Shown piece after piece: positions 864 through 10,224 of a stretch of 64,000 nucleotides of DNA; position 1 is the first letter of the stretch, and the number at the start of each line of letters is the position of its first letter. A program made the position numbers and the translations under genes. This DNA comes from Candidatus Absconditabacteria bacterium (GTDB lineage: Bacteria; Patescibacteriota; Gracilibacteria; Absconditabacterales; Absconditicoccaceae). The notes beneath the pieces were generated by a model. It was not told where the DNA came from, did not search any database, and saw nothing but the letters and a program-made list of their open reading frames with translations. The DNA lies in contig JAQUVI010000002.1 of assembly GCA_028693445.1 (NCBI GenBank), positions 6,971 through 70,970 of the forward strand. The letters run 5' to 3'.

Positions 864-1834
864 TGTCACAAATCTCAATCATCACTACAACTTACAATCA
901 TAAAGATTTTATCGCTGATACGATACAGTCTATTTTGGATCAATCTATTTCTGAGCGAGAATTATTGATAGGAGATGATAGTCCTAGTGATGAAACTTGG
1001 GAAGTTATCCAAAAATATGTAAAAAAATATCCAGACAAAATAAAAGCTTGGCATCACAATCCAAACAAATGAATCGTAGAAAATATGAATTTTTTGATAC
1101 AAAAAATTTCAAAAGAAACTAATTATGTTGCATTTTTGGAAGGCGATGATCTACGAGAAAAAGACTGTCTAAAAAATAAATTAGCTATTTTTGATAAATA
1201 TCCCAAAGTGCAGCTTGTTTACAACAGTCTTGATTTTATAGATAGACACAACAATATTATACAAAAAGATATCTTTGGATTTAGAAAAATAAAAAAGTAT
1301 CAGAATACAAAAATTTCTCCAGATATGTATATATCAGCAAATGTTTGACCAATTATATCTTGGAGTACTGCAATGGTTACAAAATCAATGATAGAAAAAT
1401 ATCCTATAATTTCATTGAATCCAAATAATAAAGCATACAGTGTTTCTGATTATGATTTTTATTTTCAAATTGCGACTAATTATCCTGTTTATTATATAGA
1501 TCAAGCTCTTACTTTATATCGTAGACATCAATCAAATCTCTCTGGTTCGAATCCCAAATTGATGGATGAACTATCTGATCTTATTACTCTGTATCACAAA
1601 CAAAAATATATATCAGATTCTGTTTTTTCTCAAAAAATGAGCCATAATAAGCTTATTCAATCAATTATTTATTTAGAAAATAAAAATAGAAAAAAAAGTT
1701 TTGAATATCGAAAAAAATCTCTCAGTTATAATTTTTTTGATCATTTTATTATGAAAATAGCTGTTTTAAAATTAATTTGTTTACCTCTTTTTGTTAGTAA
1801 ATTTGTTTTTTCCAAACTTATTAAGAGAGGATAA
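863..1834 (+). CDS. Family 2 glycosyltransferase
   Basis: This 323-aa protein is a GT-A fold glycosyltransferase. It begins with the nucleotide-sugar motif ISIITTTYNHKDF, then GDDSPSDET, and has the metal-binding acidic motif LEGDD at about residues 92-96. A later YRRHQSNLS resembles the acceptor-side region of the family. The last 80 residues are basic and end in a hydrophobic stretch that could sit on the membrane. TGA codons inside the gene read as glycine. It is coupled to the upstream methyltransferase by TAATG. Its stop lies within the 3' end of the convergent glycosyltransferase (14-nt overlap). It probably adds one sugar to a cell-surface polysaccharide; donor and acceptor cannot be told. 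Confidence 0.88.
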
Positions 1835-2660
1835 ATTTTCTTTTTTCCAAATTATTTTTATCATATCTCTTTACCTTATATCCCTGTAATACAAACGGTA
1901 ATCTCTCAATTTTATCTATCAAGTATCAGATTTTTATCTTGTGTAAAATTGGATAGATACATTTTCTCATAAGTTCAAAAGCTGTGGCAAATGTTGCGTA
2001 CCATATTGGATGTAAGGAGAAAACTGTTTTGAGATTTTGTTGTGTAAACTTATATCGTTTGTAACTATAATTTGTTGCTCCATTTTTGATGCGATGCATA
2101 GTCAGAGTTTCGTCTAGATTGTATATGATTTTTTTCCCTTTACACAAAATCTGTTTTTGAAATAGAGCATCTGCCATATATACGGTTTTTGGATATCTAT
2201 ATTTTTGGTCGTTTCTAAATACTAGGGATGGATGTATTGTATAGTAATTTTCTTCTCATAGATAATATTCAAATCATTTTTGGTCTCATTCGTATCGCAT
2301 AAGTGTTTTGGTCCCACATCAGATATATTTGTGATTGTTCTCCAAAAAATATATTTGTTTTTCTAATTTCTGTGGATGTCGAATATCATCATGATCTTGG
2401 ATTGCTATATATGTTCATGTAGCTTTTTCCAATAAGAAATTGAGCCCCGCATAGGGTCATAAATTTTTTTCTGAGGGGAATAATTGTATTCTTGGGTCTT
2501 TCTGTGTTTGGATGTTTTTCCTTGTGTTATCTTTCGAATTGTTGTCCAAAATAAGCAATTCAAAATTATTGTATGTTTGCGATAATATACTTTTGATTGT
2601 TGGTATAATATATTCTCAAGCATTGTATGCACAGAGAAGTATCGAAACTTTTGGTCACAT
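1821..2660 (-). CDS. Family 2 glycosyltransferase (second copy type)
   Basis: This 279-aa glycosyltransferase starts with VSILLCAYNAGEYI, followed by SILSQTYNNFELLILDNNSKD and the acidic motif QDHDD, the usual order of a GT2 catalytic domain. ATG at 2660 is followed by a TGA glycine. TGA also encodes the glycines of YNAGE and LGPYAG. The end overlaps the convergent GT2 at 863-1834 by 14 nt. Just upstream of its start lies the left 45-nt repeat, a relic of the 3' end of the cytidylyltransferase gene. It may therefore originally have followed that gene directly, before the AbiE pair came between them. Surface polysaccharide synthesis is inferred. Confidence 0.87.
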
Positions 2661-2691
2661 GGATTATCTATAAAATAAAATCAGATTTAAA

Positions 2692-2736
2692 TTTTTGCTC
2701 TATATTCACTACTATTGTGTGTTTTGGCTCATAATC
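2692..2736. repeat. Left 45-nt direct repeat bounding the AbiE pair
   Basis: This 45-nt stretch matches 4030-4074 at 43 of 45 positions. Read on the minus strand it encodes the tail of the cytidylyltransferase (LGAKTHNSSEYRAK, then Ile and a TAA stop), so it is a relic of that gene's 3' end lying between the GT2 start and the abiEii stop. See the right copy. Confidence 0.88.
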
Positions 2737-2742
2737 ATATTT

Positions 2743-3405
2743 CTACTCAAAATCTAATTTCATCTGTATAATTCCAATTAGACTAGATATCAGATTGTTT
2801 TTTACAAATTTCTTTTGTTCTTCGTCCAAGACTTCTCCCAATCAATCCAAAATCTTGTATTCTTTTGGTAAATTTTCTAATTTCTCTTTTATTTTATTCA
2901 AAAGAGTATTCAAATCATTTCAGGTTCTTTCTTTTATTACTTCCTCGTTTATAGGAAACGAATTGTTGAAGAAAAAATTAATATCGTATATATCTCTATT
3001 TGTATGTCTTTGTATCAAAGCCACAAGCTTGTTTGCAAAAATAGTTCATTTGTCTTGTGCTTTTATATCTGTACCATAAAAATTTAATATTTCATATCTG
3101 TTGTTTTCCCAAATTACTCTATTTACATCTATTTTTATGTTTACATCATAATCTCCATAAGACAAGGTTAGTTTATTTCACTTTTTTATTGTTCCATATT
3201 TTTGTGCTATTTTTGCTAACTCTTCATCTATATGTTTTGAATCATCCAACAAATCAAAATCTAAATCAGTAGAAAATCTATCTAATTTGTGAAGAAAATA
3301 AGTAGCAGTTCATCATTTAAATGCCAAATATTTTCCAATATTACTATTAAAAATATCTTTGATAAGATTGAACATAATAGTTCTATGTTGATCTGTGTTG
3401 AGCAT
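2743..3405 (-). CDS. abiEii: AbiEii-type nucleotidyltransferase toxin
   Basis: This 220-aa protein carries the AbiEii/AbiGii signature. KGGTATYFLHKL (about residues 30-41) is followed by RFSTDLDFDLL (43-53), where GG and DxD form the nucleotide and metal site of the DNA polymerase-beta fold. Both catalytic glycines are encoded by TGA TGA, so the gene only works in a UGA=Gly cell. Family members are the toxin of type IV/AbiE systems and act by nucleotidyl transfer, giving abortive phage infection or growth arrest. The gene starts 23 nt inside the antitoxin gene. The pair lies between two 45-nt direct repeats. Length is a little short for the family (often 230-300 aa). Confidence 0.88.
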
Positions 3406-3958
3406 TTTTGATAAGTTTATCTATTTGTAAAATCACTCTTTTGTTGTATATTTGCGCTATTTGTTTGAGTTTTTGAATATTAATTCACTCTAAATTATCA
3501 AAATAATAATCTCAAGATATATATATTCTGTCACATATAGCTCTTTCTGTACTGGCTATTGTGTATTGTTTTTTTTGTTCCAATCATAAAGGATTTTGTA
3601 ATATAGTTTTTTTGATTTTATTATATACAAAATTTAATCAAATTACTTTTTTTTCTCATGTATTATCGCTTGCCAAAAATATTGTATGAGAATAATCTTG
3701 AAATATTATTCACTTAGATTTTAATACTGTCTCAAATGAAATATATGAGTTTTTTTTTATTTTTGAGGCAAATTCATATTTGTCAAAATTGGGTAAAGCA
3801 TATATGCCTTTGGATAAACGCTGCAATGTCCCAGATTTTATTTGTCTTGATAAAAAGCTTTTGATTGTCTCTCTATTTTCTATTCAAAGCAATAATCATA
3901 TATCTTTGTAATTAAAGATTGTTTTTTCTGATTTTAATATTTTATTTATATATTTCAT
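3383..3958 (-). CDS. abiEi: AbiEi-type antitoxin / transcriptional regulator
   Basis: This 191-aa protein lies directly upstream of, and overlaps, the AbiEii toxin. It has an N-terminal winged-helix-like part, SGTLQRLSKGIYALPN being typical of AbiEi (recognition helix then wing). Then come YISFETVLKSKG and ASTERAICDRIY, a pattern shared with this family's C-terminal domain. AbiEi proteins usually repress their own promoter and neutralise the toxin. The ATG at 3958 is the first in frame and no other gene lies between it and 4025. The TGA codons all fall on plausible glycines. Confidence 0.82.
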
Positions 3959-4024
3959 ATTTCATCGTTATGGGTTTAAATACAAACCTATTGTAGTGAA
4001 ATTTGGATAATATGCAAATAAATT

Positions 4025-4465
4025 TTAACTTTTTGCTCTATATTCACTGCTATTGTGGGTTTTGGCTCATAATCCATCTTTTATTTCTATATTGAGTTCT
4101 TTGCAAACTTGTACTTCTGGAATATTGTCTGTGAATCTATCTCATCATTTACCGAAGATAATTTTGGTTTCAGGACCGTATTTGTCTTTGATAAGTTTTG
4201 CTGTATGTTTTATGCTTTGGCAAACTGATCAATCCTGATCTATAGATAAAACTACTTGATCTACGGGTTTGATGGATGAGGCTACTCTCATTCTAAAATT
4301 TTCATCTTGAAAGACTTCTTGTTTGCCTGTTTTGTCTCTGACTTGTTTGTCGTTATTTACAATAACTCGTAGTTCATCTCATAGTTCTTTGCAAAGTTCT
4401 AGACATTCGATATGTCATGGATGGATTGGATTGAAATAACCAGAAGTGATGACGATTGTTTTCAT
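4025..4465 (-). CDS. Cytidylyltransferase-like nucleotidyltransferase (HxGH)
   Basis: This 146-aa protein is of the nucleotidylyltransferase superfamily. SGYFNPIHPGHIE (residues 8-20) has the HxGH motif (His15, His18), and a later KIIFGKGGDR plus a C-terminal HNSSEYR fit the family fold. Relatives charge small phosphates with CMP or AMP (glycerol-3-phosphate, heptose-1-phosphate, phosphopantetheine). The sequence does not decide the substrate. The neighbouring glycosyltransferases suggest a precursor for a surface glycan. The last 45 nt of the gene are duplicated at 2692-2736 on the far side of the AbiE pair. The promoter was not resolved. Confidence 0.82.
4030..4074. repeat. Right 45-nt direct repeat bounding the AbiE pair
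   Basis: This copy forms the intact 3' end of the cytidylyltransferase gene. It differs from 2692-2736 at two positions. Between the two copies lie only abiEi and abiEii (about 1.3 kb). The arrangement resembles elements that enter at the 3' end of a gene and restore it, but no integrase gene is present between the copies. Confidence 0.88.
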
Positions 4466-4490
4466 GTAGTTTATTAATTGATAAATATTA

Positions 4491-4523
4491 GATTCCGACT
4501 CCAACTGGCAAGGTCGGAATGAC
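4491..4523. repeat. Interspersed palindromic element (GATTCCGAC...GTCGGAATGAC)
   Basis: This is a 33-nt hairpin with arms ATTCCGAC and GTCGGAAT around a short loop. The same family recurs at 6426, 21639, 26948, 34035, 47321 and 47370, with covarying arm sequences (CCGAC/GTCGG or CCCGC/GCGGG). Here it lies between the cytidylyltransferase and DJ-1 genes. Confidence 0.85.
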
Positions 4524-4530
4524 ATAAGAA

Positions 4531-5040
4531 TTATCTCAAAGCATTCGCTATTTCATTTCCAAAGGCTGTTGCGGATTGGGGGCTGTTGGCGGTGATGATG
4601 TTTCCGTCTACGACTACGTTTTTCTTGACGAAGATTCATCAGTTGTTTTCTATATATTGCTGCCAAGTTCATTCTTCATCATCTCGTCCAGTAACTTGTT
4701 TTCACTGGAACAATCCGCTGTCGGAGATGAGTGATGGAGCGATGCATATCGCTCCAAGGAGTTTTGATTCTTTGGCGAGGCGGAGGTATTCTGGGTTATT
4801 TTGGTATTGTCTCAATGCTCATCCGCCTCCTACAAATATCACAGCATCGTAATCTGTGCCTTTTGCGTCTTTGAGTGCTATAGTTGCAGATGTTTCGTGA
4901 TCAAAAACTCCAACACATAGTCCTGTATGTTCTGCGCAAACGGTGATTTGATGTCCTTCGTTTTCCAAAATTTCTCTAGGGATACGGTATTCAAAATCTT
5001 GAAATTTTTTGTTGGCGATGACGAAGAGAATTTGTTTCAT
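4531..5040 (-). CDS. DJ-1/PfpI family protein
   Basis: This 169-aa protein has the DJ-1/PfpI fold. FQDFEY supplies the conserved acidic residue (about Glu17). DAVIFVGGGGA precedes the nucleophile-elbow motif LLGAICIAPSLI with the reactive Cys at about residue 99. The C-terminal VVVDGNIITANSP is also typical of the family. Relatives act as glyoxalases, deglycases or chaperones, and which activity applies here cannot be told. Glycines at VGGGG, LFQG and NNGG are partly TGA-encoded. It seems to be a single-gene unit, bounded by a hairpin element downstream and a 78-nt repeat upstream. Confidence 0.9.
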
Positions 5041-5191
5041 AAGATTTTTTTAATTTATTAAAAACTTTTTTGGTTTAAATTTAAATCATTTTTTCGCTTC
5101 AGTTGGAGTTACTTTTGGTCGCTCCGCTGGGATTACTTTTGGCATTGCCCTCCCGCATCAAGTGCGGGACAGGCGCCAGTAATCAAAAACG

Positions 5192-5269
5192 CTAGGCCAA
5201 ACAAGTCCGCCATTTTTGTTTGGCCATAACTTGCTTAGTCAACGTAATCATTCCAGCTATATCAACACG
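5192..5269. repeat. 78-nt interspersed element, copy 1
   Basis: This stretch is nearly identical to 24876-24954. It contains a self-complementary core (GGCCAAACA ... TGTTTGGCC) and then a non-palindromic tail. The rest of the 270-nt gap between DJ-1 and rimO holds further inverted fragments (for example CCCGCATCAAGTGCGGG near 5152-5168) and no gene. Confidence 0.85.
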
Positions 5270-5311
5270 TTAAGTTTGTTTATTTTTTGCTGTTTTATAG
5301 ATTAGTTTTTT

Positions 5312-6784
5312 TTACACAATATAGCTAATTTTATCTCAAATTTCCAGCTCAATTTTGTTGTTTTCTACTCAGGTGATTTGATCAAGGGTAATTTTGTCGT
5401 AAGGGTCGATTTCTGGTCAATGGAGGAGTGGGCGGATTTCTAGGATTGTTTTTTCTTCGTTTGGATTCACGCCGCAATGACTGAGTGTTGATCAATCTGG
5501 ATTGCTTCATTTTCATTCGCAATGACTGTTTACTTTTTTCTGTTTAATTTCCATAATATATCCTGTTTCTTCGATTCCTTTTCTTTGTTTTTCTTTTTTT
5601 GTGAGTAATTTATCTACGATATCATCTGCTTGTATAAATCTTTGTTTGAGTGTATTGTCGTCGATTTTGTCGCGTAATTTGCTTGATGCAGCTAGTGGTT
5701 CGTCGTGATATTCAAACAATGCGATGTTGTCGAAATAATCCTTTTGTAAAAAATCTAAAAGTTGTTGATGATCAGAATTTGTTTCTCATGGAAATCATAT
5801 AATAATATTGGTCCTGACAAATCTTGTAGGAAATTCTTCTTTGATAAAATCTAGAAATTTATAGATAGCTTCTTCATTGTAAAATCTTCCCATTTTTTTG
5901 AGCAGAGGAGCACTAATATGTTGTAGGGGAATGTCGAAATATGGTATAAACTTTTTGAGTTTTGTGAGTTTTTTGAGGTGATCTAAGGTGAGAATATCTG
6001 GATATAAATATAATAATCTGAATTTAAAATTTCCTTTGAGTTTGTCTATTTCTTGTAATAGTTTAAAGAGCATTGATTTTTTATAAAGATCGGTTCCATA
6101 TCTTGTGGTATCTTGCGCGATGAGAATAATTTCTTCGATTCCATTTTTTATCATATTTTTTGCTTCTTCTATAATAGTTTCGATAGGGAGAGATTTTTGC
6201 TTTCCTCTGATTTTTGGAATAATACAAAAACTACAGTTATTGTCACATCATTCTGCTATTTTGAGATATTCGAATTTATGATCTATATTTGTGTAAACTC
6301 TTGGATTATTTGTAAATTCAAAATCCTTGTAATCTGTGCTGTTGTATCATTCGAGTAGTTTTTTGAGTGTTAGGGTATTGAAGTCGTTTCGTGAGAGTGT
6401 GAAAATGTTTTGGGTATTTGGATTAGATTCCGACTCCAAGTTCTTTAGGTCGGAATGACATTCTTTATTCTTAATAAATTGAAAATGGTTGTTAGAATTT
6501 AAATTTTTATAATATTGGACAGCACAGCCCAGAAGATATACTTTTTTGCCTTTTTGGAGAAGCTTTTTTAGAGTATGGGCTGCTTCATCTCTAGCAGAAG
6601 AAATAAATCCACAGGTATTGAGAAAAACAAAATCCACTTCTTTGGCGTAGGGATCTATATGATATTGTGGTAATATATGTGGTTCCTTTTCTGCCAATGT
6701 AAAAACTTTACCAAGAAGATGCTGAGTATCTACTAGATTTTTGGTACATCAAAGATTTATAGAAGAAAAATTGAATACTTTCAT
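5312..6784 (-). CDS. rimO: Ribosomal protein S12 methylthiotransferase RimO
   Basis: This 490-aa radical-SAM enzyme adds a methylthio group to an aspartate of ribosomal protein S12. The N-terminal MTTase domain has INLGCTKNLVDT (Cys13), a second Cys in FLNTCGF and a third in LLGCAVQ, ligating one Fe-S cluster. The radical-SAM triad is EGCDNNCSFC, and GFPGETNSDHQ and a C-terminal TRAM-like domain follow. It is longer than usual (about 430-450 aa) because repeat-derived peptides are inserted in frame. One lies after the LLGCAVQ segment (encoded by 6426-6459) and one before the TRAM end (encoded by 5463-5526). The ATG at 6784 gives the expected N-terminus. Confidence 0.92.
5463..5526. repeat. 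Two palindrome-type repeat fragments inside rimO
   Basis: GGATTCACGCCGCAATGAC (5463-5481) and GGATTGCTTC...CGCAATGAC (5499-5526) are two adjacent elements ending in the same CGCAATGAC tail, a sequence style known for interspersed repeats. Both are read in frame within rimO, contributing peptide around SHCEGKGSNPDG and SHCGVNPNEE close to the C-terminal TRAM region. Confidence 0.7.
6426..6459. repeat. Palindromic element inside rimO
   Basis: This 34-nt copy of the GATTCCGAC family is fully inside the rimO reading frame and encodes, on the minus strand, roughly CHSDLKNLESES. The element has no stop in this frame, so rimO remains open. The same element at 21639-21672 is intergenic and differs at about one position. 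Confidence 0.88.
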
Positions 6785-9480: not shown

Positions 9481-10224
9481 TTAAAATAATTCTGTTTGTC
9501 ATGGTGGATTTCTATCAATATGGTCTTTATATAATTTAAAGAATCTTTTTAAAAATGCTAATAATTCATTATCTATCCTATTTATATTTCAGAATATTTC
9601 ATTTGCTATTTGTTTTATAAAAATTTCTCTTTTTTTACCAGTTTCTTTGTTTTTTAATAGTTTATCAAAGAATTTTTTTAAATAAATAAAATATTTTTCT
9701 TCTCATATGTTTTTGATAACAAATCTTAATCAAAATCGTTTTGTATTTATTTTTTCATTTTTTTCTATTGCTCGTCTGAAAAACTCTTTTTCTTTGTCTG
9801 ATAAATTAATACTTAACAATTCTTTTGTTTTTCTATTTTCTTCTTCTGTTTTTTTTCTTTTTATATCAAGATTTTCTTTTAATTTTTGATTTATTTCTTC
9901 TTTTATTTCCTTTTTTCTAAGATTTCATACGGTTGATGTTATTTCAAATAGATCTTTCTTTATGCCGTTTGGCAATCCTTTTTTTTCAAAGCATTTTTTG
10001 TATGTATTGTAAAAATAATTATTGTTATTTCTTTCTTCTCATGTTTTGTTTTTTATTGTATAAAAAAAATCACAAAAAAAATCATCCAATTTTGATAAAT
10101 AGTTCCCTTTATATTCAGGGGAAAGACTATAATATATATTTTTCCATTGATTTGAAAATTTTTTTTTGATTTCAGTCAATGTGTTTTCACTTAGATATTT
10201 TAATCAATTGCTAGGTGTTTCCAT
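9481..10224 (-). CDS. Hypothetical lysine-rich protein
   Basis: This 247-aa protein is not recognised. It is strongly charged (many Lys, Glu, Asn) with no signal peptide or membrane segment. A central stretch of about 40 residues (KKEIKEEINQKLKEN onward) should form a coiled coil. The C-terminal half (NIGEEKYFIYLKKFFDKLL and EIFGNINRIDNELLAFLKRFF) looks helical. It starts at ATG 10224 and ends at TAA 9481, 21 nt from the hydrogenase-like start, so it may lead that operon. No function is proposed. Confidence 0.7.

What the first reader, a model, noticed from the sequence alone, without database searches (positions are those of the whole stretch)
2692..4074. AbiE pair between 45-nt direct repeats made from a gene's own 3' end
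Seen: the last 45 nt of the cytidylyltransferase are duplicated on the other side of the abiEi/abiEii pair (2692-2736 and 4030-4074, 43/45 identical), and the GT2 starts 32 nt beyond the left copy. Known: some mobile elements insert at 3' ends of genes and restore the gene with an incoming copy. Inference: the ~1.3-kb toxin-antitoxin unit may be a minimal element that restores its target gene, or a recombination product. No integrase is present.
Basis: partly seen in the sequence, partly recalled or inferred. Interest (0 to 1): 0.7.

Follow-up and report, generated by a model that had tools for sequence, protein, structure and literature searches.

The report
Toxin–antitoxin insertion with long target duplication
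A two-gene toxin–antitoxin unit was inserted just past the end of a sugar-nucleotide gene and left that gene's last ~50 letters duplicated on its far side; related units in about two dozen other bacteria carry similar scars at unrelated genes, suggesting that these small units move between genome sites without a transposase or integrase of their own.

Summary
In this code-25 (TGA=Gly) Gracilibacteria-type genome the last ~50 nt of a cytidylyltransferase gene recur beyond an abiEi/abiEii pair (4030-4074 and 2692-2736, 43/45 identical), nowhere else in the genome. A congeneric genome (G002) has the same gene order without AbiE: an empty site. A second filled/empty pair (G102/G105) shows the same anatomy. 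Of 171 distinct AbiEii places surveyed, 25 lie between direct repeats 1-2 kb apart, against 3.6 +/- 1.6 (maximum 8 of 500) for random placement in the same DNA. In the junctions inspected the repeats are 26-239 nt, unrelated between sites, mostly gene 3' ends, sometimes a gene start, a tRNA or intergenic; AbiE lies in either orientation; in the closest units the insert runs from about its own promoter to about the toxin stop codon; no terminal inverted repeats were found. This matches 'insertion with long, variable target duplication', described for restriction-modification systems; I found no report of it for AbiE. How insertion happens is unproven (template switching or one-sided recombination during DNA uptake).

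The parts
4025..4465 (-). cytidylyltransferase-like gene (target), intact, ends ...GLGAKTHNSSEYRAKS*
   Evidence: PF01467, E 1.9e-11; 12 homologues at 55-90% identity among the relatives searched
4030..4074 (-). right (gene-side) copy of the 45-nt direct repeat, inside the intact gene
2737..4029 (-). inserted unit, 1293 nt between the two strict repeat copies
   Evidence: absent from the syntenic G002 locus
3990..4018 (-). promoter-like site (TTTGCA - 17 - TACAAT) at the very start of the unit
   Evidence: consensus match only; such sites are common in this AT-rich region (17 found, 13.8 expected)
3383..3958 (-). abiEi antitoxin/regulator, 191 aa
   Evidence: PF13338 AbiEi_4, E 1.3e-6
2743..3405 (-). 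abiEii nucleotidyltransferase toxin, 220 aa, with the residues that are invariant in its relatives (FKGGT, RFS.DLDFD, K126, RD..D)
   Evidence: PF08843, E 7.5e-19; alignment A1
2692..2736 (-). left copy of the repeat: 3'-end fragment of the cytidylyltransferase; in-frame stop just beyond it (2687-2689). Starts 6 nt after the abiEii stop
   Evidence: collinear with the empty site of G002 on the GT2 side
1821..2660 (-). GT2 glycosyltransferase, next gene at the empty site
   Evidence: PF00535, E 5.1e-29; 83% identical and directly after the cytidylyltransferase in G002

Best explanation
The AbiE pair is a ~1.29-kb insertion that entered the cytidylyltransferase-GT2 junction after this lineage split from its congener G002, with a target duplication of 45-51 nt. 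The copy joined to the gene body leaves the gene whole; the other copy remains as a fragment in front of GT2. This is one case of a recurrent mode of movement of AbiE type-IV toxin-antitoxin units. A piece running from about the -35 box to about the toxin stop codon is inserted in either orientation, with long, variable target duplications (26-239 nt) and without integrase, transposase or terminal inverted repeats. Shown: the insertion, the empty site, the recurrence and the enrichment. Inferred: that all flanked loci share one mechanism; that the insertion is made by replication template switching or one-sided recombination during DNA uptake; and that addiction to the toxin then keeps the insert although RecA could delete it between the repeats.
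For: Empty site in G002, collinear on both sides; no AbiEii in G002. Second filled/empty pair: G102 UDP-sugar dehydrogenase - AbiE - 118-nt 3' fragment - next gene, versus G105 with the two genes adjacent. 25 of 171 distinct AbiEii places are spanned by direct repeats 1-2 kb apart versus 3.63 +/- 1.57 (max 8) for random placement; for gaps of 1.2-1.5 kb, 15 versus 1.07 (max 4). Flanked units occur in Gracilibacteria and in MAGs labelled Deltaproteobacteria, Anaerolineales, Gammaproteobacteria, Roizmanbacteria and others. In 11 selected junctions a promoter-like -35 lies -3 to +48 nt from the repeat end, and the other repeat starts -8 to +20 nt from the abiEii stop. No terminal inverted repeats in 21 units (lowest p 0.115). 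Some copies are identical (26/26 in L292, 40/40 in L142), as in recent duplications. No Ku in 49 family genomes, ComEC in 41.
Against: 85% of AbiEii places show no such repeat at this sensitivity, including the two other AbiEii genes of this genome. Some of the 25 are weak or may be terminator or dispersed repeats (L283, L260, L304; L129 looked like a shared terminator and is not among the 25). The 11 junctions were chosen by me, and other flanked units have longer margins (for example L135, L160, L114, L281). In the window, the three sites where copies differ all have the resident (G002-like) state in the fragment and a different state in the gene, which would also fit an imported 3' end. No read-level evidence of movement or of a circle exists.
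Confidence: 0.72

Rival explanations
1. Import by recombination: a donor in which AbiE already lay behind its own cytidylyltransferase recombined through the gene body on one side and joined illegitimately 45 nt inside the resident gene end on the other (homology-facilitated illegitimate recombination, HFIR). The intact gene then ends in the donor's 3' end and the fragment is the resident end.
For: Left fragment agrees with G002 at the three sites where the copies differ; copy differences are purely synonymous in the window (2/2) and in G102 (3 nt in 2 codons), and 6 of 7 in G306 def, as between two functional alleles; ComEC present in most family genomes; HFIR is described in competent bacteria (PMC3240628).
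Against: Needs AbiE beside the same gene in a donor: none of the other 12 cytidylyltransferase loci examined has AbiE beside it. Does not explain many different targets without earlier insertions. Identical copies elsewhere (L292, L142) fit plain duplication. Over all coding cases synonymous changes are about 40%, near my own rough expectation for one constrained plus one drifting copy.
Confidence: 0.17
2. A transposase acting in trans moved AbiE as a MITE-like unit, as IS1634/IS1549 do, leaving long variable repeats.
For: IS1549 and IS1634 leave direct repeats of 8-514 bp (PMC2266710), the same range.
Against: No terminal inverted repeats in 21 units; right end falls at or within ~20 nt of the abiEii stop in the closest units.
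Confidence: 0.05
3. Site-specific integration: the repeats are attL/attR of an integrase acting in trans, with the gene end restored by attP.
For: Gene 3' ends and two tRNA-end cases (L279, L194) resemble att sites.
Against: Repeats unrelated in sequence and 26-239 nt long; targets include a gene start and intergenic DNA.
Confidence: 0.03
4. Assembly or binning artefact, or chance repeat.
For: All related loci come from draft genomes or MAGs.
Against: Window repeat is unique and lies inside a 210-kb contig; copies are diverged; the pattern recurs in independent assemblies and phyla at about 7 times the random rate.
Confidence: 0.03

Closest known systems
Insertion with long, variable target duplication of restriction-modification systems (Nobusato et al. 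2000, pmid 11163967; Furuta et al. 2010, pmid 20071371; as summarised in PMC3874152 and PMC3031569)
   Same: An addictive gene unit inserted without a recognised mobile element, flanked by target duplications of the order of 100 bp, inferred from comparison of related genomes
   Different: Cargo is a type-IV toxin-antitoxin pair, not a restriction-modification system; units ~1.3-1.8 kb, many in CPR bacteria; original papers not readable here, only papers citing them
AbiE type-IV toxin-antitoxin systems
   Same: AbiEi_4 and AbiEii Pfam matches, overlapping operon, conserved nucleotidyltransferase residues
   Different: Nothing unusual seen in the proteins; the mode of insertion is the new point
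IS1549 / IS1634 long variable direct repeats (PMC2266710)
   Same: Long, variable-length target repeats
   Different: Those are insertion sequences with a transposase; here no transposase and no terminal repeats
Homology-facilitated illegitimate recombination (PMC3240628)
   Same: Could yield one homologous and one illegitimate junction with duplication
   Different: Needs prior linkage of AbiE to the same gene, not seen
Integrative elements at gene 3' ends
   Same: Gene end present on both sides
   Different: No integrase, no shared att, varied targets

Membership tests
AbiE type-IV toxin-antitoxin system | AbiEi_4 antitoxin gene overlapping an AbiEii nucleotidyltransferase gene | tested here: met
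   PF13338 E 1.3e-6 and PF08843 E 7.5e-19; invariant residues kept; ORFs overlap at 3383-3405
AbiE type-IV toxin-antitoxin system | toxicity and neutralisation without direct contact | not testable with these tools
   needs an expression assay
Insertion with long target duplication | empty site with one copy of the repeat in a relative | tested here: met
   G002 versus window; G105 versus G102
Insertion with long target duplication | repeat long and variable, derived from the target, unrelated between sites | tested here: met
   26-239 nt, different genes
Insertion with long target duplication | insert not carried by a recognised mobile element | tested here: met
   only abiEi/abiEii lie between the repeats in the window; no terminal inverted repeats
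Insertion with long target duplication | cargo is a restriction-modification system (as in the published cases) | tested here: not met
   cargo is AbiE; so it works like the published cases with a new cargo type
Integrase-dependent element at a gene 3' end | integrase in the element and a fixed att core | tested here: not met
   no integrase between the repeats; repeats unrelated between sites
IS1634/IS1549-type transposition | terminal inverted repeats and a transposase | tested here: not met
   no terminal inverted repeats, no transposase in the unit; a transposase elsewhere in the genome was not searched for

The most novel reading that the evidence does not exclude
AbiE units, and perhaps other toxin-antitoxin pairs (RelBE case L194), are self-sufficient mobile units in many phyla. 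They spread as promoter-to-stop minimal cassettes by an undescribed insertion process that leaves long, variable target duplications, with addiction replacing transposition genes as the means of persistence.
Probability: 0.4. Interest if true: 0.8.

Novelty: new variant of a known kind. Interest (0 to 1): 0.6.

Why it matters
How solitary chromosomal toxin-antitoxin pairs reach their sites is unclear when no transposon or phage surrounds them. Here the scars, empty sites and unit boundaries are readable in many genomes, and they resemble what was proposed for restriction-modification systems. That makes it testable whether addiction modules in general move by one shared insertion process and are kept by killing cells that lose them. 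The wide set of sites also gives material for working out that process.

Tried and rejected
Rejected: repeat as a dispersed element (two copies only). Terminal inverted repeats (none). NHEJ of a staggered break in this family (no Ku in 49 genomes). Related AbiEii on phages or plasmids (no tblastn match at 1e-5). Empty site for G030: its ATPase gene was found in no relative searched; htpG in relatives has no AbiE beside it, but the downstream gene is not syntenic. Syn/nonsyn counts between copies do not separate drift from imported alleles overall. L129 left out (likely shared terminator). L202 repeats proved to be terminators; the L136 repeat next to AbiE is a tRNA-like sequence.

Full report
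WHAT IS THERE. The window comes from a 1.17-Mb genome of 11 contigs that reads TGA as glycine: under table 25 the broken ORFs become whole genes. On the minus strand lie DJ-1 (5040..4531), a cytidylyltransferase-like gene (4465..4025), abiEi (3958..3383), abiEii (3405..2743) and a GT2 glycosyltransferase (2660..1821). The direct repeat 4030-4074 / 2692-2736 is real, 43/45 identical, and is found nowhere else in the genome with up to 3 mismatches. With one more mismatch it includes the gene's stop codon.

EMPTY SITE. Twelve relatives carry a clear homologue of the cytidylyltransferase. In the closest, G002 of the same genus, the order DJ-1, cytidylyltransferase, GT2, convergent GT2b is the same, but the cytidylyltransferase runs straight into GT2. 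Aligned to it, the right copy in the window continues the upstream gene and the left copy continues into GT2. G002 has no AbiEii match at all. So AbiE is an insertion with duplication of ~50 nt of target, or G002 lost it precisely; its absence from both congeners searched favours gain here.

RECURRENCE. Among 49 family genomes 14 have a relative of this AbiEii. The closest at that level (G030, 61%) sits between 239-nt repeats that copy the 3' end of an 896-aa ATPase-like gene, in opposite orientation to that gene; G007 has 27-nt repeats. I then took AbiEii loci from the class and from 80 best genome contigs across phyla and scanned them for direct repeats. After removing duplicates, 25 of 171 AbiEii places are spanned by repeats with a gap of 1-2 kb (>=44 bits), against 3.63 +/- 1.57, maximum 8, in 500 random placements elsewhere in the same loci; with gap 1.2-1.5 kb, 15 against 1.07. 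Targets include the 3' ends of htpG (G117), a UDP-sugar dehydrogenase gene (G102), an oxidoreductase subunit gene (G094), rfbD (G091) and pheT (G049), the start of a gene (G103), a tRNA (L279), an acyl-CoA dehydrogenase 3' end (L292, MAG labelled Anaerolineales) and intergenic DNA (L261, L310). Gene names of these targets are my reading of the translated sequences, not separate family searches. A second empty site, G105, was found for G102.

ANATOMY OF THE UNIT. In eleven selected junctions the inserted DNA begins close to a promoter-like -35 (offset -3 to +48 nt from the repeat end) and ends -8 to +20 nt from the abiEii stop. The promoter calls are consensus matches only. Other flanked loci have longer margins. 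No terminal inverted repeat exceeds shuffled expectation in 21 units. Repeats of 26/26 and 40/40 identity (L292, L142) suggest that copies start identical; others have diverged by up to about 20%.

HOW IT MAY WORK. The pattern needs a process that inserts a short unit and duplicates a variable stretch of target. Survivors keep one full copy of the gene, which explains the bias to gene ends without any site preference. Candidates are template switching during replication (leave the template, copy AbiE, return upstream of the exit point) or one-sided recombination with incoming DNA. Ku is absent from the family and ComEC is common, which disfavours end-joining and allows DNA uptake. Which one acts is inference. 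In the window the fragment has the G002-like state at the three differing sites, hinting at an imported gene end; the counts of synonymous changes over all cases do not decide.

KNOWN OR NEW. A review states that some restriction-modification systems insert without any mobile element, with long and variable (order of 100 bp) target duplications (PMC3874152; also PMC3031569; both cite pmid 11163967 and 20071371). IS1549/IS1634 also leave long variable repeats (PMC2266710). A paper on mycoplasma toxin-antitoxin systems mentions flanking direct repeats at one other module (PMC8562856). My searches found no report for AbiE; the library lacks most subscription papers, so priority is not certain. 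A check of RelE/ParE loci gave a 65-nt, 98% repeat around a RelBE-like pair at a tRNA end (L194) and a weaker case (L188) among 30, so the mode may not be limited to AbiE.

LIMITS. Most related loci come from draft MAGs; taxon labels are those of the records. Repeats that have decayed are missed, so 25/171 is neither a rate of insertion nor an upper bound. The random control uses neighbouring DNA, not matched gene pairs.

Noticed in passing
L171 (G306) 1132-4089: A def (deformylase) gene followed by AbiE, a RelB/RelE-like pair, a remnant resembling AbiE sequence, then an 81-nt def 3' fragment (91%): several toxin-antitoxin units appear stacked at one target.
   Followed up: partly
L131 (G094) 2680-5365: Three copies of an oxidoreductase 3' end: one before AbiE, one after it, and a third 1.1 kb further at the contig end; L135 (G091) carries a similar fragment after its AbiE although it sits at rfbD.
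   Followed up: partly
L202 (G097 C1 around 9589-9849): Array of small genes separated by near-identical terminator and promoter segments (about 60 nt, six copies in 3 kb).
   Followed up: partly
L061 (G017) 2373-3333: 103-nt direct repeat (91%) around a 755-bp segment with a 106-aa protein gene, directly upstream of another AbiE pair.
   Followed up: partly
G000 C11 305312-306601 and 415422-416000: Two further AbiEii genes in the same genome, without flanking repeats of this kind.
   Followed up: partly
window 4485-4525: Intergenic REP-like sequence (ATTCCGACTCCAACTGGCAAGGTCGGAATGAC) between DJ-1 and the cytidylyltransferase; G002 also has a repeated segment in this gap.
   Followed up: no
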